Positions 17,684 through 33,289 of a stretch of 64,000 nt of DNA are shown here, one piece after another. Source of the DNA: Marinobacter sp. F4216 (GTDB lineage Bacteria > Pseudomonadota > Gammaproteobacteria > Pseudomonadales > Oleiphilaceae); NCBI RefSeq assembly GCF_019931195.1, contig NZ_JAIOUO010000002.1, positions 682,001 through 746,000 on the forward strand. The letters run 5' to 3'. A model generated the notes under the pieces. That model was given only the letters and a program-made list of their open reading frames with translations, was not told where the DNA came from and did no database searches. A program made the translations under genes and the position numbers. Positions within the stretch are counted from its first letter, which is position 1, and the number at the start of each line of letters is the position of its first letter.

Positions 17684-18541
17684 TTACGTGGAAGGTAGTG
17701 CTCTTGACGTCGTTCTGACCCAGTCAACGATAGCGTCAACGACCGTGTGACGATCGTGCGGCTCGGAGAGGATGTGGCTTGCCTGGGGGCGATGGATAAC
17801 CTTCAGATTGTCGCCAAAGCGAACGGAGCTGAAGCAATCGGAGAACTGCTCGGGATACCGGTAATGCTCATTTCCCATAAATACATATAACATCTGGAGA
17901 TTCCTCTGGTTCAGCTTCTCCAGGCCTTCAGCCACCTCTGCTTTGGGCGGATAACTGGCGAAGTCCGGCACCTCGAAATAGCGCTCATCGATGCCCGATA
18001 AGTCCGCGCCTCTTTTCTGCTCAAGCAGACCGAGTTTCCGTAGCACGAATTTGAGCCATCGTGCCGGTGAGCGCAACCGTCGAATATAGTGAATCAGGTA
18101 ACTCTTGGTCGTCATATAGCAGTAACCATCCAATTGAGCTGTTGCGACGACTCGAGGGTCCTCCAGTGCTGTCCGGTAGGCGGCAAATGCGCCAGAGCAA
18201 AGGCCGTAGAGAATAAAACGGTCGAACTGTTTCCAGTTGGAGAGGTAGTTCATCACTTCCTGAACTTCCTCAACAGCCGCCAGGTCGGCGGTTAGCGTGC
18301 CTCGTCTGGGTTCGCTGTCACCGATACCGGAAAAGTCAAAGCGAAACGTGCTCAACCCGGATCGTTCCGATATCGCTCTGGCCAGAGTCACCGTCAGACG
18401 ACAAGAGCCGACACGGTGAATGACGCCCGAGTTCAGGAGTATTACGGCGGTTCTGGGATCTGCAAGTTCCCCGGCCCTTGGTTCGCAGAAAACGCCGACA
18501 AGAGGGCGGTCGTCACCAACCATCACTACTTGTTCACGCAT
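17684..18541 (-). CDS. alpha/beta hydrolase, exosortase A system hydrolase 1-like
   Basis: 285 aa alpha/beta hydrolase. The strand-turn-helix elbow reads LYGLCSGAF (residues 111-119), so the nucleophile position is Cys115 rather than Ser. A late ASHILSEPHD supplies the His. FRFDFSGIGDS is the oxyanion-region motif. Exosortase A loci regularly carry two such hydrolases (types 1 and 2) beside an acyl-ligase/decarboxylase module, and this protein fits type 1. The overlap of 8 bases with the upstream hydrolase gene and the NRPS genes before that make it the last gene of one long minus-strand operon. It may act as a stand-alone thioesterase or acyltransferase for the NRPS product; that is inference. 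Confidence 0.72.
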   Translation of the reverse strand: MREQVVMVGDDRPLVGVFCEPRAGELADPRTAVILLNSGVIHRVGSCRLTVTLARAISERSGLSTFRFDFSGIGDSEPRRGTLTADLAAVEEVQEVMNYLSNWKQFDRFILYGLCSGAFAAYRTALEDPRVVATAQLDGYCYMTTKSYLIHYIRRLRSPARWLKFVLRKLGLLEQKRGADLSGIDERYFEVPDFASYPPKAEVAEGLEKLNQRNLQMLYVFMGNEHYRYPEQFSDCFSSVRFGDNLKVIHRPQASHILSEPHDRHTVVDAIVDWVRTTSRALPST

Positions 18542-19340
18542 AGTGTGTCATCTCGTACTGGGTCGTCGCGCTGAAATGACGCTCGATCGCGTCGATAACA
18601 GGCTTTGGCCACAAGATTCCACCGACATGGTCAACGTAATTCCAGTCGTGTGGAGCCGGTGCGAGCTCGGAGTAGAACATTTTCCTATGATCCAGTTGCC
18701 TCTGAATTTTGGCAAATTCATCGGTTTCGTGGGAAACGAACTGAGCGATGGGCAAGGCAATATCTTGAGCCAGTTCACCCAAACTGAATGCCTCAAGAGA
18801 GTTCTGGAAGGCCTTGGACATTGAGAATCCATTGAAATGAATGGTCCCGTCTGGTGTCAGTATTTTCGAACGACTTCCCAGTTTCTGAGCGTTTGCGACG
18901 GCAGTCTTTATCTCCTCAAGGTATCCTTCACCGTCTGTGATCGGGTCCCAGAGGATTAGTCGGGAGATATCATTGCTTTCGATGGCGGCCCTGGCAGCGA
19001 GTATGGCCCCAAGACGAAGTCCTACGAGCGCTACTCTGGAGACGCCTGCCATGTCCCGAAGCTCCTGGATGGCATGGCCTATATCTTCGACCCACTCGTC
19101 GGCCGTTACATCGGACAGATCCCCGGCAGAGTCCCCTGTGCCGCGATAGTCAAAACGCAAAACGGGATAACCAAGCTCGCTCAGGTTTATTGCCAGCCTG
19201 CGAATCGACTTGTGGGCACGCAAGTACTCCTGTCCAAATGGATTACAGAGGACAATCCCCTCATCAAGATGACCTGTTTTTCTGGGGTGATAAACGCCCA
19301 GCAGATAGCTCTGTGATGGTCCAAAAAAAAACGCTTCCAA
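18534..19340 (-). CDS. alpha/beta hydrolase, exosortase A system hydrolase 2-like
   Basis: 268 aa. The fold marks are EGIVLCNPFGQEY (oxyanion-side loop), LRFDYRGTGDSAG and the elbow VGLRLGAIL (residues 106-114). The nucleophile position is Arg109, so no Ser or Cys is present where the family usually has it. PHDW near the end has the catalytic-type His. It fits the hydrolase 2 type of exosortase A loci. The start is a TTG at 19340 with GGGAG 7 bases upstream, and no other start fits. 82 bases downstream of the NRPS gene and 8 bases overlapping hydrolase 1. It may be a non-catalytic partner or use a different mechanism. Confidence 0.7.
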   Translation of the reverse strand: MEAFFFGPSQSYLLGVYHPRKTGHLDEGIVLCNPFGQEYLRAHKSIRRLAINLSELGYPVLRFDYRGTGDSAGDLSDVTADEWVEDIGHAIQELRDMAGVSRVALVGLRLGAILAARAAIESNDISRLILWDPITDGEGYLEEIKTAVANAQKLGSRSKILTPDGTIHFNGFSMSKAFQNSLEAFSLGELAQDIALPIAQFVSHETDEFAKIQRQLDHRKMFYSELAPAPHDWNYVDHVGGILWPKPVIDAIERHFSATTQYEMTHYA

Positions 19341-19422
19341 TCGATTCTCCCTGCAAACGTCTACCCTGAACTGCTGCGTAAGTAGACCTCGATATCACTA
19401 TCGTAGTCGCAAATCGTTTGAA

Positions 19423-22400
19423 TTATGAGCCGAAAAGCCGCTGAAATACCGAGCGGCCGGACTTTTTCTCTTGTTTAGCGTCGGGGGGCGCATCCTTATC
19501 AATCGCTTCCTTGGGCACCGCTTTTTGTTCTACCAGGTTCGCCAGCTGCTCAAGTGTATTGACCCACAAATCCTGAGGCATGAGGCTGACACCAAACGTT
19601 CTCTCGATTTCTACGATGACCTTCAGCGCAAGCAGTGAATGCCCGCCAACCTCCAGAAATTGGTCATCGATGGTCACGTGCTCCCGTTTCAGCAGAGCCG
19701 TCCAGATATCAATAAGCTTCTGCTCAGTGATCGTTGGTGGACGTTCAGGTTTGCGAGCCTCAACCACGCTGGTGGTTTGCGCGAGAGCTTTACGGTTGAC
19801 CTTACCGGACGGAAGCAGCGGTAGTTCCTCGTGAGTTACAAATTGTTGAGGGATCATGTAATCCGGCAAATAATTCCGAAGGTGTTTACGAAGTTCGCTG
19901 CCTGTCGGCTGCTGCTCGCCCTGATAGACAATGTGGGCGCTGAGTCGCTGGTCATCCACGCCCAGATCCTGAACTACGACAGCGGCATCTGCGACATCGG
20001 GGTGTGACCTTAACTGGATTTCGATTTCTTCCAGCTCAATCCGGAACCCGCGGATTTTTACCTGATTGTCGAAACGGTCGCCAAACTCCAGTTGGCCGTC
20101 CATGGTCCAGCGTGCAAAGTCCCCGGTTCGGTAGAGTCTCCGGCCATCCGGGAAACGCACGAAACGTTCAGAAGTTTGTTCCGGATTGCCCCGATAGCCC
20201 CTCGCCAGGCCCAGCCCGCCGATCCACAGTTCTCCATACACACCGGGAGGCAAGGGGGTACTTTCTTCATCAAGAACATAGAGTTGGGTGTTTGCAAGCG
20301 GACGTCCAATCAGTACTCGTGGGGTGCTTTGCTCGTCCGGGAGGTGCACTCTGTAACAACTGGTCCACACGGTGGCTTCAGTCGGGCCGTACATGTTCCA
20401 GAGCTCAACGTTGCAGGTGAGCAGCGCTGATGCCAGATCCGGGGGCAGTTTTTCACCACCCACCAGGCCCCGCAGTGGTGTCTCCGTTGCCAGGCCGGCA
20501 TTAACCAACATGCGCCAGGTCGCTGGTGTTGCCTGTAGCACAGAGATTGAATGCTGAGTGATCAGGGAGAGCAGCTGATGAGGGTCTTTGTTTTGCCTGC
20601 TAGAGGCAATGACCAGCTTTGCGCCAACAGCCAGCGGCAAAAATAGTTCCAATATGGAAATGTCAAAAGCCGGGGTGGTGATGGCCAGCAGACGATCTTC
20701 TGACGTAAGCCCTGGTTTCTCAGCAACCGCTTTTAGAAAGTTGCTCAGGGCTTCGTGGCTAATCTCTACGCCTTTGGGAACGCCCGTGGAACCTGAGGTG
20801 AATATCACATAGGCCAGTTGGTCAGGTTTTAGGGTAACCGGCAGCTTATCCGAACTCTGGTTATTTATCGTGTCCTGATCCTGGTCGAGAAGGATGGTGG
20901 TTCCTTCATGCGCCCCTACCACGCTATCAAAGTGGGTGACGCTAATCAGATGATGTGCATTTGCGACGCCAAGGATCGCTTTTACTCGCTCGACAGGAAA
21001 GAGCGCGTCAAGCGGAACGTATGAGGCTCCCAGCTTCCAAAGGGCAAGAATGGTAAGTGGCAGTTCAACCGTGCGATCCAGAAGGATTGCCACGACATCG
21101 CCGGCCTGAACTCCCTGGGATGAAAAGTGCCTTGCTAACCTGTTGGATCGTTCATCGAATTCGCGATAGGCGTATTCCCCGTTGGCATCAATGCAGGCAA
21201 TGTCGTCCGGGTGCTCTGCAACCTGATGGTCGAACTGAGATAAAAATCCATTCTCGAAGGGCCGTTCGACGTAGGTGTTGTTCCAGTTCTGGATCATCCG
21301 TTGCTCGTCCTGAGTTGCGCCTGCAACAAGATCGAAGCCTTCCTTTTGCTCCTGAAGCGCTGTGATGCTTTCCTGAAAACTTATCACAAAGCCCTCTACA
21401 GTCGCGCGGTTGAACAAGGCGACCGGGTACTCAAATCCGCATTGAATACCGTTGGCGTGCCGCTTGAACCAGACATCGAGATCGGTTTCCACACCTTCCC
21501 TGTCGAGGTTTATCTGGGTGCGCTGAATACCATCCATCTCGTCTTGTCGGTTTCGGACATCCTGATAGTTGAACAGGGTCTGGGCGATGGGATTTCGAGA
21601 GGTATCACGGTGAGGGTTTATGGTACGCACCAACAGGTCAAAAGGAACGAACTGATGCTCCATGGCACTGAGTATGGTGTCTTTTACATGGCGTACTAAC
21701 CCATCAAAGGACTGTAAACCCGTTAATCTGAAACGGCAGACAAGAACGTTGATCATCGGCCCCATAAGACCCTTGAATTCATCCAGATGTCGTCCGTATA
21801 CCGGCACATTCACGATGATTTCGTTTTGCCGGCTGTAGCGGTGCAGCATGTGAACGTATAGCGACATGACAACCATGAACAGCGTGGTCTGGTGTCGCGC
21901 AGCAAGCGCTTCGAGTGTTTCCACACTGGTCTGATCAATATCAAACTTGATGCCTTCCGAGCGATGGGGCTGTTGGCTTGGGCGATCGAAGTCGGTTGGC
22001 AGATTCAGTACGGGCAACTCTCCGGAGAGCGTTTCTTTCCAGTAGTCGAGGTGTTCTTCGAGGCGTTCACTTTGCAACCAGTTGGATTGCCAAAGTGCAA
22101 AGTCGTTAAACTGCAGCGGCAAGTCGGGCAGGGGATTGGCCTGATCCTTTGCAAAGGCGTTGTAGAGAGTGCAGAGCTCCTTCAGCAGCAAATCAAAAGA
22201 CCAGCCATCGAACACCAGGTGATGGATCAGGAAAAACAGGATGTAGTCCTGGGAGTCTGCTTCGATCAGTGATGCCTTGAACAAGGAGCCGGAAGAGACG
22301 TTGAACGGCTCGGCAACCTCTGTTCTTAATGCCGTTTCCAGTGAATCCAGGTCGCTTGCGTTGTAGTGGGACAGTGGGAGTGGTTTTAAATCAATCCGCC

Positions 22401-25400
22401 TGTTCTCATCCACAACGATGTGAACTTCACCATCCAGCTCTACGAAATTCGACCGCAGAATTTCATGGCGTTGAAGAATTTTGTTCAGCGCCAACCCCAG
22501 TGCTTCGGTATTCAGCTGCCCCTGCAGTCGAAATACGGCTGGCAGATTGAAGGCATAGGAATCCGGGACGATTTTTTCGTAAAGATACCAGACCTGCTGC
22601 TGGTGGATGGCAGGTACAGGGGTGTTTTCCGTATGCCTGACGATGGGTGGTACTTCCTCGATGTAGACGCGCTCTGACTCAATGACGCGACACATCTCGC
22701 GAATGGTCGGTGCTTCGAACAGCCTTCCCAGCCCAAGGCTCACGCCAAATTGACTTTTCACCTTGGCGAGCATCTGAGTACCCAGAAGCGAGTGCCCTCC
22801 CAGGTCAAAGAAGTTGGCCGATGCACTGATTTCCGGAGTTCCCAGAATATCGTTCCAGATCCTGCTCAGCTCTACCTCAAGTTGCGATTCCGGTGCTTCG
22901 AAGGTGTCGCTGTTCAGCGCTTCGATTTTGGGCGCGGGAAGTGCCTTACGATCCACTTTCCCGCTGGACGTAAGCGGCAGGGTCAGCAGCTGAACGAAGT
23001 GTTGCGGAATCATATAGTCGGGTAACTGCCGGCCCATATGAGCTTTGAGCTGTGGCAGGACATCTGCCAACTCATCTTTCGATACGATGTAGGCGACCAG
23101 ACGCTGGTCGTTCTTGCGATCTTCCCGCGCTAAAACCGCACACTGGGTGACGCCCGGATAGGTAAGAACGATGGATTCGATTTCCCCCAGCTCGATCCGC
23201 AGTCCCCGAAGCTTGATCTGGAAGTCGTTGCGGCCAAGATATTCAAGGACGCCATCGGTGCGCATTTTTACCAGATCGCCCGTACGATAGGCGTTGTATG
23301 GCTCATCGCTGAACGGATCTCGGATAAACCGCTCGGCGTTGAGCTCCGGACGGTTTACGTAGCCCCTTGCGACTTGCACGCCGCCAATCAGGAGTTCGCC
23401 AACCAGACCCGGGGCGAGGAGCCGCATATCTTCATCCACGACGTAAAGGCGAGTGTTGGACAGGGCCGTGCCTATTGGCACTGTGTGAGTAGATTGCTTC
23501 TGACCGCATAACCATAGGCTGGCGTGAACGGCTGCTTCTGTTGGTCCGTACAGGTTCCAGCACTCTGCCTTTGGGAATGCCTCTGAAAAACGGGCTTCCA
23601 GCTCGGTACTGACCGCTTCGCCGGTTAAGACAAAACGTCTAAGGCTGGGGCATTGGGCCTGGGCGTACTGGTCCAGGAAAAGGTACGCCATTGAGGGTAC
23701 GAAGTGGATGTGGGTTATCTTTTCTTCATTAACGAGACTGGCAAGATAGTGGGGGTCTTTGTGTCCGCCGGGCCGGGCAATGATCAGCCTGCTGCCACAC
23801 ATGAGGGGGCCAAACAGCTCGCAAAGGGAAACATCAAAGGTGTACGGCGTTTTCAGCATCACCGCGTCGGATTCGTTCAACGGCAGCGCTTCCTGCATCC
23901 ATAGCATGTGGTTGCAGATCGAACGATGCTCAAGCATGACGCCTTTGGGGTTGCCGGTTGAACCCGAGGTGTAGATCACATACGCGAGCTGAGAGGGAGA
24001 GTAATCGATTCCGGGTCGGGTAACGGGACAGTCAACGAGGCTTGCCGGTGGCGTGTCCAGTGCAACAGTCTTAATGCCTTGGGGGACCTTTTCGGCCTGA
24101 GCCGACTGAGTCAGAACCAGCTCTGCCTGAACCTCATCAACGATGAATTTGAGCCGATCATGAGGATGATCAGGATCAAGCGGGAGGTAGGCACCGCCTG
24201 CCTTCAGAATGCCGTTGATCGCGATGAGCATTTCCATGGACCGTTCCATCAGTACCGGCACGATGGTTTCGGCGCGCACGCCGCGGTCTATCAACCAATG
24301 TGCAAGCTGGTTAGCCCGCTCGTCGAGCTCACGATAGGTAAGCTGCTCTCCCTCGAAGACCAGAGCTGTTCGATCCGGGAACTGGTCGGAAGCGTCTTCA
24401 ATAAGACCATGCAGGCTGGCTTGCTCAAGGCTATAGGGGCGCCTTACACCTTCCCATAACTGCTGATAGAGGGCGATGTCTGCGTCGCTGATCAGGTCGT
24501 GATGCCTTATGGTGGCTTCTGGCTCGGAAACAACGTGGCCGAGAAGGCGCAGAAACTCACCCATACGGCGATCGATGGTCTCGGTGTCCCAAAGGTGGAG
24601 GTTGTGTGTGCACTCCATGACCGCATCGCGGTCTGACAGCGTGATGTTTAAATTGATGTCAAAGTTTTCGGATACCCGGGGGTTGGATTCAAACACCGCA
24701 TCCAGTCCTGCGAACTCAAAGTCGGATTCGTTGGACTGATCGACGTTGAACAGTACCGACACCAGCGGTGGCTTTGATGGATCCCGAGTGGCACCGAGTG
24801 TCTTGAGCAATGTGCCATACGTCAGGTACTGGTGCTCGAAGGCTTCCAGCATGTTTTGCTGTGCCTTGTGCAGCAGGGACTCAAAGGTATCGCTGGACGA
24901 TACGCTGATGTGCAGCGGAATAATGTTGACGCAATGACCAATCAGCTCATGCTCTTCCTTGGCCATCTGTCCGGCAAACGGTATCCCCAGGACAATCTCT
25001 TCGCAGCCTGAAACTCGATTCAGGTAGGCCGCGAACGCTGCCATGAGCGTGGTTGTGAGGGTGCTCCTGTTTTTGGCAGCCAGCGTTTTCAGTTCACCAA
25101 GGAGAGGCAGCGGAAGTTCTTTATCCAGCCGAAAAGCACGGAAACTTCTGCTAGGGGCCCTGGGCCGGTCGTAAGGAAGATCCAGAGCGGGAATTCCGTG
25201 TGCAAACCGTTGTGTCCAGTAGGCAATGCTCTGTTCGCGCAGGGGCTGTGTTTCGGGACTGCGCTCCCAGGCCGCGTAGTCGCTGAAAAGAGGCGCCGGT
25301 TCCAAATTCGGGACTGAAGATCCGGTGCAGCGGGCCGAGTACAGCTTGCCGAGTTCGCTGGCCAGGACGTAAAGAGACCATCCATCACAAACAGAGTGGT

Positions 25401-25863
25401 GCAGGGTCAATAACACCCGCGTGTCTGTTTCGCTGCAAAGAATGACATCGAATTGGGCGAGAGGGCCATTGAACAGATCGAACGGTGCTGTGACCGCGTT
25501 ACTGGCAAGGTCGCTGACCTGCTGCGTGGTGTCTTCGTCGCTCAGTGGGCGACAATCGTACACCTTGATGGGCGCAGGGCGGTCTTTGTAGACCACCATT
25601 TCCTCGCCATCATTGCTGAAACAGCCTCGTACCGACTGATGTCTGAACCACAGGTCTTGCAGGGCTTTTTCGAGGGCTGCCTGATTCGGGGTTCCCTGAA
25701 GTCGGACAAACACGGATTCATTGAATGCAACACTGGCGTCTTCGCCAAACTGGGCCGCCAGCCAAACTTCCCGCTGGGACTCGGTGCTCTCGACGGTGCA
25801 CTCGAGTTCGCCAAACTGGAAAGGATCATGGTGTTTGTCGTACTTGAAAACGGCGCTATTCAT
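19423..25863 (-). CDS. non-ribosomal peptide synthetase, C-A-T-C-A-T
   Basis: 2146 aa. C1 (about 25-455) has HHSVCDG at 155-161. A1 (480-990) has YTSGSTGNPKG at 631-641. T1 (1000-1065) has LGGHS with Ser1025. C2 (1085-1520) has HHLVFDG. A2 (1535-2030) follows. T2 (2045-2112) has VGGHS with Ser2076. A short K/E-rich tail follows and no thioesterase is present. The A-domain pocket residues read by alignment to GrsA are D-V-C-H-V-T-L-V-H-K for A1 (serine-like in places, not a known code) and D-I-L-Q-L-G-M-V-W-K for A2 (the glycine code). Both condensation motifs are intact. It sits 6 bases downstream of the PKS-NRPS gene, whose C-terminal linker matches the usual aminotransferase-to-C-domain hand-over. 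ATG start, weak ribosome-binding site. Confidence 0.9.
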   Translation of the reverse strand: MNSAVFKYDKHHDPFQFGELECTVESTESQREVWLAAQFGEDASVAFNESVFVRLQGTPNQAALEKALQDLWFRHQSVRGCFSNDGEEMVVYKDRPAPIKVYDCRPLSDEDTTQQVSDLASNAVTAPFDLFNGPLAQFDVILCSETDTRVLLTLHHSVCDGWSLYVLASELGKLYSARCTGSSVPNLEPAPLFSDYAAWERSPETQPLREQSIAYWTQRFAHGIPALDLPYDRPRAPSRSFRAFRLDKELPLPLLGELKTLAAKNRSTLTTTLMAAFAAYLNRVSGCEEIVLGIPFAGQMAKEEHELIGHCVNIIPLHISVSSSDTFESLLHKAQQNMLEAFEHQYLTYGTLLKTLGATRDPSKPPLVSVLFNVDQSNESDFEFAGLDAVFESNPRVSENFDINLNITLSDRDAVMECTHNLHLWDTETIDRRMGEFLRLLGHVVSEPEATIRHHDLISDADIALYQQLWEGVRRPYSLEQASLHGLIEDASDQFPDRTALVFEGEQLTYRELDERANQLAHWLIDRGVRAETIVPVLMERSMEMLIAINGILKAGGAYLPLDPDHPHDRLKFIVDEVQAELVLTQSAQAEKVPQGIKTVALDTPPASLVDCPVTRPGIDYSPSQLAYVIYTSGSTGNPKGVMLEHRSICNHMLWMQEALPLNESDAVMLKTPYTFDVSLCELFGPLMCGSRLIIARPGGHKDPHYLASLVNEEKITHIHFVPSMAYLFLDQYAQAQCPSLRRFVLTGEAVSTELEARFSEAFPKAECWNLYGPTEAAVHASLWLCGQKQSTHTVPIGTALSNTRLYVVDEDMRLLAPGLVGELLIGGVQVARGYVNRPELNAERFIRDPFSDEPYNAYRTGDLVKMRTDGVLEYLGRNDFQIKLRGLRIELGEIESIVLTYPGVTQCAVLAREDRKNDQRLVAYIVSKDELADVLPQLKAHMGRQLPDYMIPQHFVQLLTLPLTSSGKVDRKALPAPKIEALNSDTFEAPESQLEVELSRIWNDILGTPEISASANFFDLGGHSLLGTQMLAKVKSQFGVSLGLGRLFEAPTIREMCRVIESERVYIEEVPPIVRHTENTPVPAIHQQQVWYLYEKIVPDSYAFNLPAVFRLQGQLNTEALGLALNKILQRHEILRSNFVELDGEVHIVVDENRRIDLKPLPLSHYNASDLDSLETALRTEVAEPFNVSSGSLFKASLIEADSQDYILFFLIHHLVFDGWSFDLLLKELCTLYNAFAKDQANPLPDLPLQFNDFALWQSNWLQSERLEEHLDYWKETLSGELPVLNLPTDFDRPSQQPHRSEGIKFDIDQTSVETLEALAARHQTTLFMVVMSLYVHMLHRYSRQNEIIVNVPVYGRHLDEFKGLMGPMINVLVCRFRLTGLQSFDGLVRHVKDTILSAMEHQFVPFDLLVRTINPHRDTSRNPIAQTLFNYQDVRNRQDEMDGIQRTQINLDREGVETDLDVWFKRHANGIQCGFEYPVALFNRATVEGFVISFQESITALQEQKEGFDLVAGATQDEQRMIQNWNNTYVERPFENGFLSQFDHQVAEHPDDIACIDANGEYAYREFDERSNRLARHFSSQGVQAGDVVAILLDRTVELPLTILALWKLGASYVPLDALFPVERVKAILGVANAHHLISVTHFDSVVGAHEGTTILLDQDQDTINNQSSDKLPVTLKPDQLAYVIFTSGSTGVPKGVEISHEALSNFLKAVAEKPGLTSEDRLLAITTPAFDISILELFLPLAVGAKLVIASSRQNKDPHQLLSLITQHSISVLQATPATWRMLVNAGLATETPLRGLVGGEKLPPDLASALLTCNVELWNMYGPTEATVWTSCYRVHLPDEQSTPRVLIGRPLANTQLYVLDEESTPLPPGVYGELWIGGLGLARGYRGNPEQTSERFVRFPDGRRLYRTGDFARWTMDGQLEFGDRFDNQVKIRGFRIELEEIEIQLRSHPDVADAAVVVQDLGVDDQRLSAHIVYQGEQQPTGSELRKHLRNYLPDYMIPQQFVTHEELPLLPSGKVNRKALAQTTSVVEARKPERPPTITEQKLIDIWTALLKREHVTIDDQFLEVGGHSLLALKVIVEIERTFGVSLMPQDLWVNTLEQLANLVEQKAVPKEAIDKDAPPDAKQEKKSGRSVFQRLFGS

Positions 25864-25869
25864 ACGTGC

Positions 25870-28800
25870 TTAGCCTGCCCATTTCTCAAACTGGTTCTTG
25901 TTCGTTCTTGACGGGACGAACCACGCGGCTTTGCCATTTTCATCCCTTCCCAGGCGCGCACCCTCGACCGGGGGCTTCTGACTCTCCGTCATACTGACTT
26001 TAGTCGGATCTTCCGTAACCGGGAAAAATTCCATGGCAATCATGTCATCCATCGCCTCCTTGAACGCCTGGATAATGCTCTGAATATCCTCGTCGGTATG
26101 AGCGGTTGTGATGAACATTGGTCTGGCGTCCCAGACATGGATTCCTTTCTCACGAAGCAGGATGTAAATCAGCTCTTCAAAGGCAATGTCCTGGGGGATC
26201 TTGATCTTGCACATGGAACCGCAGTTTTCGATTTTGAGCGGCGCACCGATCATCCTGGCGTACTGGTTGATTTCCTCCACCATCCGGTCGGCGCGGTCAT
26301 TGAGAATAGACTGGAGTTCGGGCTCCTCAACCAGTCGCCGTAATACGGCCACTGCCGCCGAGAGAACAAGGGGATGGCGGACGAAGGTACCCGCGAAGTA
26401 GGTAACGCCAACCTCTGGTGAGGAATCGTCTCCGAACTGCCATTGGCCACCATCCAGTGCGTCCATGAATCCGGCTTTGCCCGAAATGGCGCCAATAGGC
26501 AGACCACCGCCAACGATCTTTCCGTAGGTGCAAATGTCTGCATCGATGCCGTAGTAGCCTTGTGCGCCCCTTGCATGGATACGGAATCCGGTAATCACCT
26601 CGTCAAAGATCAGGGCAATGCCCTGCTCGGTACACAGCGTGCGTGCTTTTTCGAGGAAGGCTTTGGGCTGGAGGCTGGGGTGTCGGCTTTGGACGGGCTC
26701 GACCAGAATAGCGGCAATTTCGTCGGCATGTTCGCGAATATAGTCTAGCGATTCGTCGCTGCCATAATCGAGGACAATCATGTTCTCTACCGCGGAGTCC
26801 GGAATGCCGGCCGCCGCTGGCACCGCATAGCCATTGCTTCCCCGTGTGACGATCACGTCGTCGTGGATGCCGTGGTAGTCGTTTTCGAACAGCACGACTT
26901 TTTCTTTTGCGGTTACGGTCCGCGCCAGTCTCATGGCACCAAGCACCGCCTCGGAGCCGGTATTGCAGAATGCGACCCGTTCATTCCCGGTAACCTGGCA
27001 GAAAAGCCTTGAGGCCTCCGCAACCAGCGGGTGCTGCGGACCGATTTCGTAGCCGGTGTCCAGCTGCCGTGCGATGGCTTCCTTGATAAACGGAGCCGAA
27101 TTTCCAAAGAAGTTCGAGCCGAATCCGCAGGTTACGTCGATAAGCTTCCCGCCATCGATGTCCCAGAGGTAGGGACCCTCTGAGCGCTCAACGACGATGG
27201 GGTATATCACCTCTTTTATAACTGTCCGAAAACCGGATACCACACGGGGATCGGCCAGCTGTTTACGGTTGTCCTGGGCAAACTGCTTGGACCTGGCGAA
27301 GCGCTGGTTGTATCGCTCGGACAGGTGATCGAAGTTTTGCTTCTGCACCGGTGTCATGTCGTTACTGCGTTTGACGTTGATGCGGGTGCCTGCGCCAAAC
27401 GGCTTCAGGCCCTCATGGGAGGATCTGGTTTGGCTTACTTTGCCCGAATCAGATGATGCGGGCGTTACCGGCAGCGGGCCCTGTGACGCCAGAGAAGACA
27501 GCACAGCCAGTTGACCCTGCATGATCTGCATCTGCTGTTGCAGTAGCGCCTGGATATCTCCGGAAGGCGCTTGCGCCATGGCGGGCTGCGGTGTGTTCAT
27601 GATGCCAGGCGGTATCTGGCCCGGAGGTGTCCCGGGCAATTCGCCGCCTTGCTGCATGCTCTGAGACGCCTGAGGCGCTGGCGCAGCCTGGGGGGTTCCC
27701 GCCGTGACCCCTTCCTTGATCAGGTAGTCCGTCAGCTTGTCCAGACTGCCGCAATCATTCAGCAGTTGGCGGAACGTCAGGTTCACTTTGAACTTTTTCT
27801 TGAGTTTCAGGGTGGACTGGGTGAGAAGCAGAGAGTCCAGTCCCAGCTCAAAGAATGTGGCTTCGCCATCCGCCTGGCTAAGGTCAATGCCGGAGATGTC
27901 GGAAAACAGGGTACGCAATTGTTCCTTGATGGCGTCGTTCATGTTTTGTCCAGTCAAACTCGGGGAATCGGGAATCGCAGCAGCAAAGTCGGGCTGAGTT
28001 GGAGAATAGCTCTCTGAGGGCCCCGGCACGACGGCTTCTGCCAGTGGTTCAATCACAAATGTCTTATGTTGGAAAGGATACTGGGGCAGGCTGGACCGCA
28101 GGCTGGGCGGGAATTCACCGCAAGGCCAATCCATGTCAACGCCAGCGCACCATGCCTTTCCGAGGCCTGTAGAAAACGATGCCAGCTCTTTCTCGTCATC
28201 GCCGGCATCTGCAACCAGGGGAACGAGGACTACATCGGATTTTTCAGCCAGGTTCTGCATGGCCATGCCACACACGGTGCCCTGAGGACCACATTCAAGG
28301 ACGACCAGTTGATTCAGTTCACCAAGGGTCTGGCAGCCTTTCCGGAACTGAACCGGCTGGCGGATTTGCCGGGCCCAGTAGTGGATGTCCGTTGCCTGAC
28401 CATCGGTTATCCAGTCGCCAGACACGCAGGATATGAACCGGAAGCGAGGGGGATGCAGTTCAATGTCTTCTAATCGCTCGGCAAAGGCCTTGCTGGCACC
28501 GTCCATGGAGGGTGAATGGAAGGCATGGGAGGTGTTGAGTTCCCTGTATTTGATGCCTTGCTGTTCAAGAATCTTGCCAAACGCCTTTATAGCCTCAGAC
28601 TCCCCGGACAGGGTGACACTGCCTTCTGTGTTTTCTGCCGCAATGACCACGCCAGCGGGCAATAAGGGCGTTAACTCGTCGATATCGGCTCTTACTGCCA
28701 TCATCGAACCGGGAGGCTGAGCCTGCATCACCTCGCCGCGTGTCAGTACAACGCGAAGTGCAGTAGGTAGATCAAAGACACCGGCTACTGTTGCCGCAAC

Positions 28801-31800
28801 CAATTCGCCAATACTGTGTCCGATGCCTGCAGCCGGCTGAACGCCGAGTCGGTTGAGCACTTCAGCCAGGCCAAAACCGACGCAGAACAGTGCAATCTGT
28901 GTCTTCTGGGTGTCTTTTAGCGGGTCACCGGAATGGAATAGCAATTCCTTGATATCAACATTGTATTCCTGCTTCAGAATGTCGTCGCAGTGATCAATGG
29001 CTTCCCTGAACACGGGAACATGCTCATACAACCGACGTCCCATACCGGCTACCTGGCATCCCTGACCGGGGAAGGCGAAGACGATGGTGGGTTCGCCGAA
29101 CGCGGGGTCATTGTCGGCTGCGTTTTCAGAGACGTTGTTCAGTGCCTCGTTACCAACCGTTTGCAAGACGGTTTCGCGGAAAGGGAAAGCGCGACGGGAG
29201 CGAATGAGGGCAGATACCAGGTCGGCACGGGCTGCCGGGCTGCTGCATTCTTCCAGCAGGCCCCGGTGTGAGCTTATCAGAGCCGAGAGCGCCTCGGCCG
29301 AATGGGCACTGAAACAGAGCGGAACCCAGTTGGGTGTGGCTCCGAAAGTGTCGGTTGCATCGGCTTGGACGCCTTTTAGCAGAACGTGAGCGTTGGTTCC
29401 GCCAATACCAAATGAGCTCACACCGGCAATTCGCTTCTCCTTCTCGGCGTCCCATGGACTGGATGTGGCGGCAACAACAAAGGGCGTTTGTTCCAGAGCC
29501 AGTTCCGGATTGGGGGTTTCGAAATTGATGGATGGGGGAATCACACCACGGTCAATAGCCAGGGCAGATTTGATGAGGCCGACAACACCCGCCGCCGCTG
29601 TCAGGTGACCGAAATTGCTTTTGACCGAACCCAGTTTGCAGAACTGCCTGTCTGGTGTGAACTGCGAGAACGCAGAGCTCAGCGCTGTAACCTCGATGGG
29701 ATCGCCAATGGGCGTGGCGGTTCCATGGGCCTCCACATAGCCAATCTCACTCACGGTTTGCCGGGCATCTTTGATGGCTGAGAGGATGACCGACTTTTGC
29801 CCCTCAACACTCGGACCGGAGAAGCTGCCTTTTTCGGCGCCATCGTTGTTGACCCCGATACCGGTAATGGCCGCGTAGACGTAATCCCGGTCCTTCAGGG
29901 CTTCATCAAGGCGCTTGAGAACCACCATGCCGCCGCCATCGCTGAACACGGTACCGGAACTGTTGGCGTCGAATGGCCTGGTATGTCCATCCCGGGTATA
30001 AATGCTGCCTTCTTCATGTGTGTGCGGCTGCTGTTGCGGGAATGCAACCGAGGCGCCACCTGCGATGGCTATATCACAGCGTCCGTGACGGATCGCCTCG
30101 ACCGCTTCAGCAACCGCGACCAGCGAGGTCGAGCAGGCGGTATGAATGCTCAATGCGGGGCCAACCAGGTTCAGTTTATGGGCAAGGCGGGTTGCCGCGT
30201 AATCCTTTTCGTTGGCGACCATGGCCTGAAGCGGGCCGTAATCTTCAAGCTTTTCGTGATTCTTGAGTACGTTGTTGAGGTAATAGGTGTTGTTGCCGAC
30301 CCCGCAGAACACGCCGATCTTGCCGGCGAACGTTTCCGGGTCAACCCCCGCGTTTTCCAGGGCATGCCAGGCAAGCTCAAGCAGCAGCCGTTGTTGCGGG
30401 TCTACGAACTCGGCCTCGATGGGGGTGATGCCAAAAAAACGGGCGTCAAATCCGAGCGGGTCATCCAGAACCCCGCGGGCGTTTACCTGATTGGTTGAGG
30501 GATTTTCCGGCTCGAAAAAGGTGACAGTTTCCTTGCCATCCAGCAGGTTCTGCCAGAATTGCTCAATCGAGTTGGCTCCGGGAACACGAGCCGAAAGGCC
30601 AATAATGGCTACATCCCGGAGTGATTCATCCCGTGATGGGGCGTTGTTGGCCTGGGATTCGCCAGATTGAACAGCTTTGTGCCGGGAGGTTGCGTATCGA
30701 AGGAAGTGACCCGCCGTACGGTGTTGAAAGAGCGAATAGACCGGTACAGAGAGCCCTGCTTTTTCCAGGAAAGAGGCCGCGATTCGGTTTGCGGCCAAGG
30801 AGTCCATCCCCTGATCCTGAAGGTTCTGGTCTTTCATCAGGCCAGGGTGATTCAATTCGTCCCGGATAATGGACATCAATTGCTCGGATAAGACTTCGCT
30901 GCTTGTGGTCTCGGTTCGCTGCTCAGTGGTGGGTTCCAACGACTCCAGCATGGATTTCCGGTCAATCTTCCCCGACGGTGTCTTTAACAGAGCGTCAACC
31001 CAGATAAAACGGGACGGCACCATGTAGTCGGGCATGTGCGACTTGAGCTGTTTACGGATAGCGTCGTCGCTGATCTGACCGCGCTCTGCTTCGGTTACGA
31101 AGGCTATGAGTCTCTTTTGCTCACCGACTTGCTGAACGGCGACCGCGGCTTCGGAAACCAAGCCTGTATCGAGTAGTCGGACCTCTACTTCACTGAGTTC
31201 GATCCGATAACCACGGATCTTGACCTGATTGTCCATCCTGCCGTGATAGGCGTATTCTCCGTTGCTATTCACGCTCACCAGATCCCCGGTGCGATAGGCC
31301 CGCCTGGGCTCTGGTCCCTGAAGCTCAATGAAACGCTCGGCGGTCTGTTCAGGACTGTTGATGTAGCCGTCGGCAAGGACCGGACCGGCGATATAGAGTT
31401 CCCCGACATCGCCGGGCGTTACTGGTTGCTGATGGTCATCCAGTACAAGCAACTCGGCAGAGGTGATCGGGAGCCCAATCGGCGGTAGCGCCGGCCAGTT
31501 ATCAGTCGGTTGGTGCAGCTGATATTCGCTCACTACATGGGTTTCGCAGGGCCCGTACTGATTGCACAGCATGGCGTTTTCAAGACCGCTGAAGGCCGTA
31601 CGAAGTTCTTTGCTGATGACCAGTTGCTCGCCCGCAGTGATGACTTCTTTAAGGGACGAAGGATAAAGTTTCAGCCGGTTGGCCCACATCACCAGTTGCA
31701 GCAAAGCGATGTAGGGCAGGAAAATCCGCTCGATCCGGTGTTCATCAATGAACTCCAGCAGCCGCCGAAAATCCTGTTTAGTGGTGTCTTCAATCAGGTA

Positions 31801-32457
31801 GAGTGTCCCGCCCATGGCAAGGGTGGAAAAGGTTTCCTGAAAGGAGACGTCAAAGCTGAATGCGGAAAACTGCAGTGTCCGGTAACGGGCCTCTGGTTCG
31901 TATCGCTCATTCTGCCACGCAATCAGATTATCCAGTGTTCCATGATTCATCAGCACACCCTTGGGCGTGCCTGTAGACCCGGATGTGTAGATCACGTAGG
32001 CGCTGGAGTCCGGAGTAATGTTGGCCGTGCCCGCGTCGACATCCGAAGGCCCGGAAAAGGAAAGTTCGCCTAGATCGAGGTGATCGCCAACGGTAGAGCG
32101 AAAGTCGTCATTGTCGGAGATGGTCAGCGCAACCTGAGCATGACTGACCATGTAATCCAGTCTGTCTGCCGGATAGAGCGGGTCGAGCGGGAGATAAGGG
32201 CTGCCGTGGCGCAAAATAGCGATGATGGCCGTGATTGCCAATTCGCGGTCGTGAGCATGGATGGCGATGGGCAAACCCGGCTTAACGCCCATCCGCTGAA
32301 TCCGGGCCTGAATAACCCGCGCATTATCTAACAGTTCTGCGTAACTGATGAACTTGCCCCGGAACCACAGTGCAGGGTTGCCAGCAAATGCCTCGGCATT
32401 TTGTTCGAATTTTGCAAGAAAACTGGCCGCGCTGCGGGAAGACACCTTTGGAATCAT
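25870..32457 (-). CDS. hybrid PKS-NRPS, A-T-KS-AT-T-aminotransferase
   Basis: 2195 aa. A (1-505) has YTSGSTGTPKG; its pocket code D-V-Q-I-I-A-Q-V-V-K differs from the GrsB/TycB proline code by two residues. T1 has GMDSL with Ser553. KS (615-1035) has HTACSTS (Cys775), EAHGTAT (His911) and NFGHLT (His951), an intact triad. AT (1120-1450) has GHSIGE (Ser1215) and HAFH at 1311-1314, the malonyl-CoA type. T2 has LGLDSL with Ser1542. A P/Q-rich linker leads to a PLP aminotransferase (1700-2145) with Lys1980. No KR, DH or ER. It would load proline, extend with malonate and aminate the beta-keto group. Start at ATG 32457 with AGGAAGG 7 bases upstream. First gene of the operon. Confidence 0.9.
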   Translation of the reverse strand: MIPKVSSRSAASFLAKFEQNAEAFAGNPALWFRGKFISYAELLDNARVIQARIQRMGVKPGLPIAIHAHDRELAITAIIAILRHGSPYLPLDPLYPADRLDYMVSHAQVALTISDNDDFRSTVGDHLDLGELSFSGPSDVDAGTANITPDSSAYVIYTSGSTGTPKGVLMNHGTLDNLIAWQNERYEPEARYRTLQFSAFSFDVSFQETFSTLAMGGTLYLIEDTTKQDFRRLLEFIDEHRIERIFLPYIALLQLVMWANRLKLYPSSLKEVITAGEQLVISKELRTAFSGLENAMLCNQYGPCETHVVSEYQLHQPTDNWPALPPIGLPITSAELLVLDDHQQPVTPGDVGELYIAGPVLADGYINSPEQTAERFIELQGPEPRRAYRTGDLVSVNSNGEYAYHGRMDNQVKIRGYRIELSEVEVRLLDTGLVSEAAVAVQQVGEQKRLIAFVTEAERGQISDDAIRKQLKSHMPDYMVPSRFIWVDALLKTPSGKIDRKSMLESLEPTTEQRTETTSSEVLSEQLMSIIRDELNHPGLMKDQNLQDQGMDSLAANRIAASFLEKAGLSVPVYSLFQHRTAGHFLRYATSRHKAVQSGESQANNAPSRDESLRDVAIIGLSARVPGANSIEQFWQNLLDGKETVTFFEPENPSTNQVNARGVLDDPLGFDARFFGITPIEAEFVDPQQRLLLELAWHALENAGVDPETFAGKIGVFCGVGNNTYYLNNVLKNHEKLEDYGPLQAMVANEKDYAATRLAHKLNLVGPALSIHTACSTSLVAVAEAVEAIRHGRCDIAIAGGASVAFPQQQPHTHEEGSIYTRDGHTRPFDANSSGTVFSDGGGMVVLKRLDEALKDRDYVYAAITGIGVNNDGAEKGSFSGPSVEGQKSVILSAIKDARQTVSEIGYVEAHGTATPIGDPIEVTALSSAFSQFTPDRQFCKLGSVKSNFGHLTAAAGVVGLIKSALAIDRGVIPPSINFETPNPELALEQTPFVVAATSSPWDAEKEKRIAGVSSFGIGGTNAHVLLKGVQADATDTFGATPNWVPLCFSAHSAEALSALISSHRGLLEECSSPAARADLVSALIRSRRAFPFRETVLQTVGNEALNNVSENAADNDPAFGEPTIVFAFPGQGCQVAGMGRRLYEHVPVFREAIDHCDDILKQEYNVDIKELLFHSGDPLKDTQKTQIALFCVGFGLAEVLNRLGVQPAAGIGHSIGELVAATVAGVFDLPTALRVVLTRGEVMQAQPPGSMMAVRADIDELTPLLPAGVVIAAENTEGSVTLSGESEAIKAFGKILEQQGIKYRELNTSHAFHSPSMDGASKAFAERLEDIELHPPRFRFISCVSGDWITDGQATDIHYWARQIRQPVQFRKGCQTLGELNQLVVLECGPQGTVCGMAMQNLAEKSDVVLVPLVADAGDDEKELASFSTGLGKAWCAGVDMDWPCGEFPPSLRSSLPQYPFQHKTFVIEPLAEAVVPGPSESYSPTQPDFAAAIPDSPSLTGQNMNDAIKEQLRTLFSDISGIDLSQADGEATFFELGLDSLLLTQSTLKLKKKFKVNLTFRQLLNDCGSLDKLTDYLIKEGVTAGTPQAAPAPQASQSMQQGGELPGTPPGQIPPGIMNTPQPAMAQAPSGDIQALLQQQMQIMQGQLAVLSSLASQGPLPVTPASSDSGKVSQTRSSHEGLKPFGAGTRINVKRSNDMTPVQKQNFDHLSERYNQRFARSKQFAQDNRKQLADPRVVSGFRTVIKEVIYPIVVERSEGPYLWDIDGGKLIDVTCGFGSNFFGNSAPFIKEAIARQLDTGYEIGPQHPLVAEASRLFCQVTGNERVAFCNTGSEAVLGAMRLARTVTAKEKVVLFENDYHGIHDDVIVTRGSNGYAVPAAAGIPDSAVENMIVLDYGSDESLDYIREHADEIAAILVEPVQSRHPSLQPKAFLEKARTLCTEQGIALIFDEVITGFRIHARGAQGYYGIDADICTYGKIVGGGLPIGAISGKAGFMDALDGGQWQFGDDSSPEVGVTYFAGTFVRHPLVLSAAVAVLRRLVEEPELQSILNDRADRMVEEINQYARMIGAPLKIENCGSMCKIKIPQDIAFEELIYILLREKGIHVWDARPMFITTAHTDEDIQSIIQAFKEAMDDMIAMEFFPVTEDPTKVSMTESQKPPVEGARLGRDENGKAAWFVPSRTNKNQFEKWAG

Positions 32458-32550
32458 CTCGTCGCCTTCCTTAGATAGAGAATACCGATACAAACTCGGT
32501 TGAACTCCGTACCGAGAATCCGCGCTTCACCCGGGTAGAATAGCTGGGGT

Positions 32551-32586
32551 GTTACAGTATGTTAAATTAGCATAACCAAGTGTAAC
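32551..32586. promoter_or_regulatory. bipartite dyad between the PPTase and NRPS genes
   Basis: GTTACA (32551-32556) and TGTAAC (32581-32586) are perfect inverted arms around centre 32568.5. A second pair, GTTA (32561-32564) and TAAC (32573-32576), shares exactly the same centre, giving each arm the form GTTA-N6-GTTA. It lies about 95-130 bases before the PKS-NRPS start, where an operator would act. TTACAC and CATACT on the minus strand, 18 bases apart, could be its -35 and -10. No regulator gene is adjacent. Confidence 0.42.
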
Positions 32587-32644
32587 GGACCATGTGGCGT
32601 GGCGTTTAGCTACTCAGTGAGAAAATCTGATTTACCGCAATTAT

Positions 32645-33289
32645 TCAGGCAAAACTGGCGGTCAGAAGGCCCAGTTCGGTTGGCAGCACAAGGCAAGGCA
32701 CGGCGGCGGGCAGGCTTGGCACCTCAGCAACGAGCCTATCCCCCTGATTCTTCAGTCGAATATCGAGCATTTCAAGATAAGAGCCGAGTTCGGGCGACGC
32801 CACCTTGACGACGGATTCCTTAACAGAGAAAGCCAGGGCGCTGGGAGGATGATCTGGATACATGGCTCGCAACAGCTCTGATTCATGGGAATTGAGAATG
32901 AGGGCCGTAAGATCGTCAGTGACGGTGGAGGGGTCCTCCAGGAGGTCGATGCCCAGTTGGCGTAGGGGAGGGCAGTAGGCAACGGCAGCCAGAGCATGGA
33001 CCTGGCCATGAGAGATTGAGCCAGTGATGCCATCGGGCCAGAGCGGATTGCCAACGGCCCCCCTAAGGACGGGGGCCGGAGGAAGCCCTGCACGCATCAT
33101 GGCTTGTCGGGCCAAACGTCTACCGGTGAAAAATTCGGTTCTTCGTTTGGGGACAGCGTTTCGAACGAGCTCTCGCTCTTGTTCATAGTCACTTTCATCG
33201 CCGCAAAGCGCGCCAGAGGCCACAAAGACGGGTGCTCCGACAAGCGCGCTGAGGCGCTTTTCGATGTGATCTGTGCTATAGCTGATCAT
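32645..33289 (-). CDS. Sfp/EntD-type 4'-phosphopantetheinyl transferase
   Basis: 214 aa. Family motifs in order: RRTEFFTGRRLARQAM (P1a region, with the F-x-x-G-R-x-x-A pattern), WPDGITGSISHG (G-S-I-S-H), LGIDLLEDPS (the metal-binding G-I-D, slightly altered after the D) and FSVKESVVK (the F-S-x-K-E-S-x-x-K signature). It transfers phosphopantetheine from CoA to the Ser of carrier domains. Four such domains lie in the two downstream megasynthases, which makes them the obvious substrates. It is on the same strand as the NRPS operon, 187 bases upstream, with a dyad in between. ATG start without an obvious ribosome-binding site. Divergent from the GNAT gene 108 bases away. Confidence 0.88.
   Translation of the reverse strand: MISYSTDHIEKRLSALVGAPVFVASGALCGDESDYEQERELVRNAVPKRRTEFFTGRRLARQAMMRAGLPPAPVLRGAVGNPLWPDGITGSISHGQVHALAAVAYCPPLRQLGIDLLEDPSTVTDDLTALILNSHESELLRAMYPDHPPSALAFSVKESVVKVASPELGSYLEMLDIRLKNQGDRLVAEVPSLPAAVPCLVLPTELGLLTASFA

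What the first reader, a model, noticed from the sequence alone, without database searches (positions are those of the whole stretch)
17684..33289. A complete NRPS-PKS assembly line inside an exosortase/PEP-CTERM polysaccharide locus
Seen: PPTase, A-T-KS-AT-T-aminotransferase, C-A-T-C-A-T and two alpha/beta hydrolases on one strand, flanked by EPS genes on one side and exosortase/prsKRT on the other. Known: exosortase-A loci commonly carry a small acyl-CoA-ligase, PLP-decarboxylase and carrier-protein module with hydrolases 1 and 2. Here the same hydrolase pair sits after megasynthases, as if the small module had been replaced by a full assembly line. Inference: the product is a decoration, anchor or signal for the EPS/PEP-CTERM system and not a free antibiotic-like molecule.
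Basis: partly seen in the sequence, partly recalled or inferred. Interest (0 to 1): 0.92.

Follow-up and report, generated by a model that had tools for sequence, protein, structure and literature searches.

The report
Peptide assembly line in exosortase locus
A marine bacterium carries, inside the gene cluster for its surface polysaccharide and protein-sorting enzyme, a complete enzyme assembly line for a short unusual peptide, which ends not in the usual cutting domain but in an unstudied pair of proteins that probably hands the peptide on to something else.

Summary
In detail: PPTase, A-T-KS-AT-T-aminotransferase, C-A-T-C-A-T and two alpha/beta-hydrolase genes, active residues intact, lie on one strand between EPS genes and XrtA-PrsT-PrsR-PrsK. 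In the genus (Marinobacter by named relatives) it is a fixed slot: 10 of 10 sampled genomes with the KS-AT-T-aminotransferase gene have it 8-13 kb from prsK, with the hydrolases. No decarboxylase of the small module is over cut-off in this genome. 'Replacement' is only partly right: the hydrolases score below both curated cut-offs and belong to a sister lineage that follows NRPS/PKS lines in several phyla, about half of it in genomes without an exosortase (25 of 48 searched). New: 'hydrolase 2' has Arg at the nucleophile elbow (123 of 123) and 'hydrolase 1' Cys (128 of 128, one lone Ser hydrolase left out). Hydrolase 2 is often fused after the last carrier domain, and the two are often fused to each other. 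I read the pair as a two-part release or transfer unit in place of a thioesterase. Transfer to EPS is plausible in Marinobacter, not shown. No structure model was obtained.

The parts
32645..33289 (-). Sfp-type phosphopantetheinyl transferase
   Evidence: PF17837 84.6 bits; 4PPT families
25870..32493 (-). NRPS-PKS, A-T-KS-AT-T-beta-aminotransferase (2207 aa); A code DVQFIAQVVK
   Evidence: Pfam domains; active residues and code conserved in relatives; aminotransferase nearest solved structure is mycosubtilin synthase MycA, 376.8 bits
19423..25863 (-). NRPS C-A-T-C-A-T (2146 aa), no thioesterase domain; codes DVCFLGLVHK and DILAVGMVWK
19426..19461 (-). basic amphipathic C-terminal tail of the terminal NRPS (SGRSVFQRLFGS), candidate docking peptide
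   Evidence: conserved in Marinobacter types I and II and in some distant lines with a separate hydrolase 2
18534..19340 (-). HYDR2: pseudo-hydrolase, Arg109 at the nucleophile elbow; TIGR03101-like below cut-off
19014..19016 (-). codon of HYDR2 Arg109 in G-L-R-L-G
17684..18541 (-). HYDR1: alpha/beta hydrolase with Cys115 at the nucleophile elbow and His256; TIGR03100-like below cut-off
18197..18199 (-). codon of HYDR1 Cys115 in G-L-C-S-G
33104..34006 (+). GNAT acetyltransferase (listed start overlaps the PPTase gene; the true start is probably later)
   Evidence: PF00583 28.6 bits
34193..35065 (+). cupin_8/JmjC-like protein
   Evidence: PF13621 113 bits
35081..36316 (+). Acetyltransf_6 (GNAT-fold) protein
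   Evidence: PF13480 65 bits
36333..37214 (+). formyltransferase (nearest solved: ArnA and Fmt)
   Evidence: PF00551 69.5 bits
37232..38791 (-). exosortase A with EpsI domain
   Evidence: TIGR03109 217.5 bits over cut-off 208
38844..41543 (-). PrsT
   Evidence: TIGR02917 372 bits over cut-off
41607..42980 (-). PrsR response regulator
   Evidence: TIGR02915 667 bits over cut-off
43118..45250 (-). PrsK histidine kinase
   Evidence: TIGR02916 679 bits over cut-off
547..15832 (.). EPS cluster: Wzy_C O-antigen ligase, GT2 and GT4 glycosyltransferases, Wzx-like flippase, pyruvyl transferase, polysaccharide deacetylase, DegT aminotransferase
15848..17401 (-). golvesin/TSP3 repeat protein (lipoprotein-like N-terminus by eye), found beside the cassette in most genus loci mapped

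Best explanation
The window holds an intact NRPS-PKS line ending in a two-part release unit instead of a thioesterase. Proposed working: the first A-T loads an amino acid (Pro-like code), KS-AT-T adds malonate, and the MycA-like aminotransferase turns the beta-ketone into a beta-amine. C-A-T-C-A-T then adds two residues (the last with a conserved, Gly-like code). HYDR2, which cannot be a Ser hydrolase (Arg at the elbow, no conserved catalytic His), docks the last carrier, through the NRPS C-terminal tail here or by fusion in other genomes. HYDR1 takes the chain on its Cys and passes it to an acceptor. In Marinobacter the cassette is part of the XrtA EPS locus, so the likeliest acceptor is the EPS, its lipid-linked precursor or an associated surface molecule. 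Shown by sequence: anatomy, location in the sampled genus genomes, Arg/Cys signature, fusions, order. Inferred: substrates, docking, acyl-Cys, acceptor. My odds: release/transfer unit 0.8; product belongs to the EPS/exosortase system in Marinobacter 0.55; covalent transfer to polysaccharide 0.35.
For: Arg in HYDR2 123 of 123 and Cys in HYDR1 128 of 128 non-redundant domains, His 125 of 126 (rows left out are named in the report). Of 20 fetched generic hydrolase loci used as controls 19 gave a match: Ser in 17, Cys in 2, Arg in none. HYDR2 lies directly upstream of HYDR1 on the same strand for 80 of 84 HYDR1 domain hits, median gap 29 nt. A carrier domain is fused to, or ends within 600 nt upstream of, HYDR2 in 66 of 78 named-locus domains, 19 of them fusions. 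A-T-HYDR2-HYDR1 is a single protein in L207 and L212. HYDR2-HYDR1 fusions: 118 of 120 listed proteins keep Arg and Cys. No thioesterase domain in P0002. MycA-like aminotransferase. Location in the genus 10 of 10. Type I and type II HYDR1 do not group (AU p = 0.0017; long-branch caveat), so the same slot seems to have been filled twice.
Against: Outside Marinobacter the exosortase link is weak: 25 of 48 named genomes searched have no exosortase over the cut-off, and only for L135 (a Marinobacter), L142, L155 and L213 did I confirm one on the same contig nearby; of eight other class genomes with a line and the pair, six have no exosortase match and two have it on other contigs. G245's line is flanked by SelO on one side and Exo_endo_phos and RapA genes on the other. 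EPS-type genes near only 14 of 73. In decarboxylase-negative class loci 13 of 22 HYDR2 domains have no carrier directly upstream, and in Marinobacter type II a C domain follows the last T. The strict tail motif is found in 24 of 59, 15 of them Marinobacter. The acid of a catalytic triad is not conserved in HYDR1. No structure model, chemistry or expression data.
Confidence: 0.6

Rival explanations
1. The line makes a free, secreted small peptide (signal, siderophore-like or surface-active), and lies in the EPS locus because PrsK/PrsR co-regulates it with biofilm formation. The pair simply hydrolyses the product off.
For: The same pair ends NRPS/PKS lines in genomes with no exosortase match (G245, G271, G467), one of them between housekeeping genes (G245); 59 of 73 non-Marinobacter named loci show no EPS-type gene by the test.
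Against: 10 of 10 sampled genus genomes have it in the same slot and two divergent lines seem to have been drawn to it independently; Arg in place of the nucleophile in half of the pair is unlike a plain hydrolase.
Confidence: 0.3
2. One reading: the small ligase/decarboxylase/ACP module of the exosortase A locus was replaced in place by an assembly line while the hydrolase pair stayed.
For: Decarboxylase and this NRPS-PKS do not co-occur in the 101 family genomes; both module types carry an Arg/Cys pair.
Against: Window HYDR1 is not on the decarboxylase-linked side (branch 100/99); scores are below the TIGR cut-offs; G314 has both; the pair accompanies NRPS lines widely.
Confidence: 0.1
3. 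HYDR1/HYDR2 are accessory editing enzymes (type II thioesterase-like) that clear misprimed carriers; release happens otherwise (spontaneous cyclisation by the vicinal amines, or an unlinked enzyme).
For: Stand-alone hydrolases beside NRPS genes are often type II thioesterases (general knowledge); the predicted chain has free amines that could cyclise.
Against: HYDR2 is fused directly after the last carrier domain, where a thioesterase normally sits, in 19 of 78, and both are fused to A-T in L207 and L212.
Confidence: 0.15

Closest known systems
Exosortase A-associated hydrolase 1 / hydrolase 2 (TIGR03100 / TIGR03101)
   Same: best NCBIfam hits; same gene pair; same Arg (hydrolase 2) and Cys (hydrolase 1) elbows in the canonical members examined
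   Different: below curated cut-offs; other side of the HYDR1 tree; the canonical pair is not downstream of a carrier domain (0 of 16), ours is
Mycosubtilin synthase subunit A (MycA-type aminotransferase domain)
   Same: the aminotransferase domain aligns best to MycA (377 bits against 204 for GSAM); KS-AT-T before it, so probably beta-amination of the extended acyl chain
   Different: starts from an amino acid loaded by A-T, not a fatty acid (recalled for MycA); no terminal thioesterase; different release unit
NRPS terminal thioesterase (type I TE) and tandem TEs
   Same: position at the end of the line; alpha/beta hydrolase fold by sequence; chain release
   Different: two proteins, one with Arg instead of the nucleophile and one with Cys; no thioesterase family hit in P0002
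PHA synthase (Cys lipase-box alpha/beta enzymes)
   Same: G-x-C-x-G elbow acting on acyl thioesters (recalled knowledge; Cys elbows G-L-C-Q-G that I take for PHA synthase-like appeared in two control loci)
   Different: no close sequence relation shown; substrate and partner differ

Membership tests
TIGR03100 exosortase A hydrolase 1 | score over curated cut-off 168.45 | tested here: not met
   80.9 bits
TIGR03101 exosortase A hydrolase 2 | score over curated cut-off 202.75 | tested here: not met
   112.5 bits
TIGR03100 exosortase A hydrolase 1 | falls with the decarboxylase-linked hydrolase 1 proteins | tested here: not met
   other side of a 100/99 branch
Exosortase A ligase/decarboxylase/ACP module | TIGR03099 decarboxylase in the genome | tested here: not met
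   best 205.3 bits, cut-off 478.45
Exosortase A ligase/decarboxylase/ACP module | stand-alone TIGR03098 ligase and carrier protein in the genome | not tested
   only the window's A domains were seen to hit TIGR03098; no genome-wide search
Arg/Cys release pair (the group described here) | Arg elbow in HYDR2, Cys elbow and His in HYDR1, HYDR2 directly before HYDR1 | tested here: met
   8 nt overlap at 18534-18541
Arg/Cys release pair (the group described here) | carrier domain directly upstream of or fused to HYDR2 | tested here: met
   P0002 ends in T plus a 35-residue tail; its ORF ends 82 nt before the HYDR2 start
Exosortase A (XrtA) PEP-CTERM system | XrtA, PrsT, PrsR and PrsK over cut-offs | tested here: met
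Hybrid NRPS-PKS (type I) | A, T, KS, AT and C domains with active residues | tested here: met
NRPS with type I thioesterase | C-terminal thioesterase domain | tested here: not met
   no such domain in P0002
Transferase to polysaccharide | peptide found covalently bound to EPS | not testable with these tools
   needs chemistry

The most novel reading that the evidence does not exclude
The 'hydrolases' of exosortase A loci and of many NRPS/PKS lines across phyla are one unrecognised two-part chain-transfer module (Arg pseudo-hydrolase plus Cys transacylase) that moves carrier-bound amino-acyl, peptidyl or polyketide chains onto surface polysaccharide or its lipid precursor. Marinobacter's XrtA locus would be a case where a full NRPS-PKS feeds it.
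Probability: 0.3. Interest if true: 0.9.

Novelty: new variant of a known kind. Interest (0 to 1): 0.74.

Why it matters
Two gene families named from their exosortase neighbourhood ('hydrolase 1' and 'hydrolase 2') would get a testable job, and the small exosortase module would become a minimal assembly line with the same ending. It would add a new way for NRPS/PKS lines to let go of their product, and, if the EPS link holds, a route by which bacteria attach non-ribosomal peptides to their matrix. In the held open-access library I found no paper on this: searches gave none that was relevant by its listing (51 lists 40 of 75 papers, 87 lists 12 of 444).

Tried and rejected
Rejected: (a) simple in-place replacement of the small module (tree, for G314). 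(b) Exosortase-only function of the pair. (c) The neighbouring formyltransferase as an NRPS initiation formylase: it aligns better to ArnA and Fmt (48 bits) than to linear gramicidin synthetase (22 bits), so sugar N-formylation is as likely; not settled. (d) The Acetyltransf_6 neighbour had no PDB hit. (e) Type I and type II Marinobacter lines as one acquisition: rejected for HYDR1 (AU p = 0.0017), with a long-branch warning from the tree program. (f) The C-terminal tail as a universal docking signal: 24 of 59, only 9 of 44 outside Marinobacter. Led nowhere: the class-wide condensation search served only as a control set; literature searches found nothing relevant; structure prediction gave no result.

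A-domain substrate names rest on recalled code positions and recalled code tables, not on a call; P0002-A1 (DVCFLGLVHK) I could not assign. Active-site motif names (HHxxxDG, HAFH, GxSxG) are recalled.
Full report
Observation. The window (G000:C5:682001-746000) holds, on the minus strand, PPTase 32645-33289, a 2207-aa A-T-KS-AT-T-aminotransferase 25870-32493, a 2146-aa C-A-T-C-A-T 19423-25863, and two alpha/beta hydrolases 18534-19340 and 17684-18541 with an 8-nt overlap. To the left lie EPS genes (Wzy_C ligase, GT2 and GT4, flippase, pyruvyl transferase, polysaccharide deacetylase, DegT). To the right, after four plus-strand genes (GNAT, cupin_8, Acetyltransf_6, formyltransferase), lie XrtA, PrsT, PrsR and PrsK, all over their curated cut-offs. 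KS Cys/His/His, AT Ser, carrier Ser, aminotransferase Lys and condensation HHxxxDG are intact in the window.

Genus-wide. In 101 genomes of the family (62 of the window's genus, counted by hand), full-length homologues of KS-AT-T-aminotransferase occur in 10, all of the genus: six at 73-74% identity to the window (type I), three at 41-42% (type II) and the window's own. PrsK is in 98 of 101. In all 10 the gene lies 7.9-12.6 kb from prsK (worked out) and a hydrolase 2 hit sits just behind the second NRPS. Gene maps of the window and ten fetched genus loci (the nine others with the NRPS-PKS gene, and G059 without it) show the order hydrolase 1 - hydrolase 2 - NRPS - NRPS-PKS - XrtA - PrsT - PrsR - PrsK; a PPTase gene was found by my script in 6 of the 11. 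Five genus loci without NRPS-PKS that I fetched, about 40 kb each (G028, G048, G050, G062, G097), have PrsK but gave no blastp hit to the hydrolase pair.

Variation inside the slot. G059 and L135/G469 lack the first NRPS-PKS gene but keep PPTase, C-A-T-C-A-T and the pair. In its place they have a gene, 90% identical between the two, that by its sequence I take for an ATP-grasp ligase (not scanned against families). Both also lack the cupin/Acetyltransf_6/formyltransferase trio. The trio is present in 9 of 10 NRPS-PKS loci and, as a set of three, in 0 of 6 other genus loci fetched (two-sided Fisher p = 0.0009; the loci are related, so p is only a guide). The exception, G076, has a different EPS cluster. 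Six type I loci have an unlabelled 381-416 aa gene after hydrolase 1 that the window lacks. That of G056 is Acyl_transf_3 (OafA-like); it was used as query and rings in the Marinobacter loci L134, L136, L138 (G068), L139 (G058) and L140 and in L141, L142 and L149; those of G066, G075 and G084 were not tested. G018 (Oleiphilus, L152) has a different PKS, and a 1596-aa protein with a formyltransferase-like start, A and T domains (a monooxygenase insert is my reading), with a 40-41% hydrolase pair between PrsK/PrsR/PrsT and a 23%-identical XrtA homologue.

The hydrolases. Against NCBIfam the window's proteins hit TIGR03100 (80.9 bits, cut-off 168.45) and TIGR03101 (112.5, cut-off 202.75), so they are relatives, not members by the curated rule; the other NRPS-type or fused pairs scanned behave alike, while a canonical pair scores 340 and 269. 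Alignments (12 rows each, from which the search profiles were built) show Arg at the nucleophile elbow of every hydrolase 2 and Cys at that of every hydrolase 1. Census: 54 of 55 hydrolase 2 domains of at least 50 bits have Arg (the exception, G162, is a lone Ser hydrolase without partner in its fetched contig) and 54 of 54 hydrolase 1 have Cys. The non-redundant total is 123 of 123 and 128 of 128, with His in 125 of 126 hydrolase 1 and no conserved C-terminal His in hydrolase 2; for this count I left out those nine duplicates and L112 (the G162 exception). Of twenty loci of weak TIGR03101 hits, taken as controls, 19 gave a match: 17 Ser, 2 Cys, no Arg. Thus 'hydrolase 2' cannot be a Ser hydrolase and 'hydrolase 1' looks like a Cys enzyme; both hold for the canonical exosortase members examined too.

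Position and fusions. In the class sample (369 genomes) hydrolase 2 (E <= 1e-14) is in 53 and the TIGR03099 decarboxylase (E <= 1e-100) in 42, 36 of them over its cut-off; 30 genomes have both, 23 (with the window's) only hydrolase 2 and 12 only the decarboxylase (overlap counted by hand). I fetched pair loci of 18 of the 22 other decarboxylase-negative genomes and of two more (G162, G413); G400 and G416 were not fetched. Of the 23, nine have an A-T, NRPS or PKS protein at the pair (the window, G145, G151, G245, G271, G290, G298, G395, G467). Hydrolase 2 is fused after the carrier in G151, G245, G290 (twice), G298 and G395; hydrolase 2 and 1 are fused to each other in G171 (twice), G303, G360 and G446, and in the canonical G347. 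Of the 80 named loci (best 80 of 204 confirmed), 72 hold at least one assembly-line domain (counted by hand). Hydrolase 2 has a carrier domain fused or within 600 nt upstream in 66 of 78 named-locus domains (19 fused); the 12 misses are partly contig edges or divergent gene order. The figures for the other sets are: 7 of 13 in fetched family loci, with the three type II lines at about 1.4 kb because a C domain follows the T; 9 of 22 in decarboxylase-negative class loci; 0 of 16 in canonical loci. L207 and L212 are single A-T-hydrolase 2-hydrolase 1 proteins. A search with the 607-aa fusion of G446 gave 1759 proteins at E <= 1e-20 (7999 candidates scored); of the 120 listed, 118 keep Arg and Cys.

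Lineages. A tree of 129 hydrolase 1 rows (eight duplicate loci left out) puts all 18 decarboxylase-linked rows, 17 of them in one clade, on a 24-row side, separated from the 105 other rows by a 100/99 branch; the window is among the 105. Holding Marinobacter types I and II together is rejected (p-AU 0.0017; long branches are a stated risk). Marking the rows whose position in an exosortase locus I had seen, 17 of 101 labelled rows, needs at least six changes on the tree. The canonical rows, four rows of unknown position and six others were not labelled; rows marked 0 include loci read only to 10 kb, so some may be wrong, and a change may be a loss. My reading is that assembly lines with this pair came to XrtA loci more than once: Marinobacter I (with MAG PMG_192, L142, where PrsK, PrsR and XrtA lie 38-43 kb away with EPS genes between), Marinobacter II, Oleiphilus, Gemmatimonas (L155), and Thioalkalivibrio sulfidiphilus (L213/G516: XrtA about 22 kb and a ligase about 9 kb before the line).

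Outside exosortase loci. PF09721 gives no match in G151, G245, G271, G290, G395 and G467, all of which have the pair with an assembly line; G145 and G298 have one on other contigs. Of the named loci I gave 50 of 80 to (48 genomes searched, one locus not held, two in one genome): 23 of 48 have an exosortase over the cut-off. I confirmed it on the same contig near the line for L135, L142, L155 and L213; for the rest, contig breaks leave the position open. G245's line is flanked by SelO on one side and Exo_endo_phos and RapA genes on the other. Window-type EPS genes (ten reference proteins, biased to this window's EPS; DegT, OafA, sulfotransferase, PrsT and golvesin were not counted) occur in 14 of 73 non-Marinobacter pair loci and 0 of 20 control NRPS loci without the pair (one-sided p = 0.025; the control is from one class only and six of its loci are under 18 kb; with loci of 18 kb or more it is 12 of 47 against 0 of 14, p = 0.03). 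The pair is therefore a general ending, and the EPS link is strong only in Marinobacter and a minority of others.

Mechanism. Type I codes are conserved: DVQF[IV]AQVV (Pro-like), DVCFLGLVH (unassigned), DILA[IV]GMVW (Gly-like guess), with one change in G059. Type II starts with DALWLGGTF (Val-like), ends with DILACGMVW, and its last condensation domain has lost the second His. Thus both lines share nearly the same last code but not the first. The aminotransferase is nearest to mycosubtilin MycA (377 bits; next GSAM 204), which acts on a carrier-bound beta-ketone (recalled knowledge). The predicted chain is amino acid - CH(NH2)-CH2-CO - residue - residue on the last carrier. The terminal NRPS of types I and II ends in a basic amphipathic tail (roughly GRxxFxRLFG); 24 of 59 lines with a separate hydrolase 2 show the strict motif, 15 of them Marinobacter. 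I propose that hydrolase 2 docks the carrier, hydrolase 1 takes the chain on Cys and hands it to an acceptor. A Cys elbow and a nucleophile-less partner fit transfer better than simple hydrolysis, but neither has been tested.

Literature. Held library only: exosortase with nonribosomal peptide synthetase (5 papers, listing seen, none relevant); searches gave none; searches gave no relevant listing; (exosortase) listed 40 of 75 papers. For Haft 2006 (PMC1569441) a term search of its text gave no occurrence of hydrolase, ligase, decarboxylase, peptide synthetase, polyketide or acyl carrier. For PMC8233155 I saw passages saying that M. [quoted passage not shown] The TIGR model descriptions beyond the names printed are recalled.

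Verdict. The replacement story should give way to a broader one: a widespread Arg/Cys pair ends many assembly lines, and one such line lives in Marinobacter's XrtA locus. Whether the product is put on the polysaccharide is open.

Noticed in passing
L234 640-6432 (G050; genus member without the pair): A 1930-aa A-C-A-T NRPS of another kind lies in the XrtA/EPS region of a Marinobacter relative without the hydrolase pair; its C-terminal part (G050_28) looks to me like a thioesterase.
   Followed up: partly
L038/L037 (G059) and L239 (G469): In two genus members the first NRPS-PKS gene is missing and a 470-aa gene that looks like an ATP-grasp ligase (90% identical between the two) stands in its place.
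   Followed up: partly
L145, L150, L153, L155, L156, L159: A recurring A-A-T protein (split A domain) followed by a KS-AT-T protein and the pair, in Gammaproteobacteria and Gemmatimonadota: a conserved line of unknown product. L192 has a formyltransferase-A-A-T form.
   Followed up: no
L077, L082, L086, L176, L181, L188, L194, L201: Aminotransferase gene + A-T-hydrolase 2 + hydrolase 1: a three-gene minimal line in Gammaproteobacteria and Planctomycetota; in L077 beside a polysaccharide flippase.
   Followed up: partly
L041 8778-10592 and 6859-8740: Type II Marinobacter lines carry an extra CocE/PepX (S15) hydrolase, a JmjC-like protein and a 273-aa protein without Pfam hit after hydrolase 1.
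   Followed up: partly
window 19426-19461: Basic amphipathic C-terminal tail on the terminal NRPS, shared in form with some distant lines (e.g. L205, L211), possibly a docking peptide or membrane anchor.
   Followed up: partly
G000:C5:507843-508595 (L002): A second exosortase gene lies about 210 kb from the window's XrtA in the same genome.
   Followed up: no
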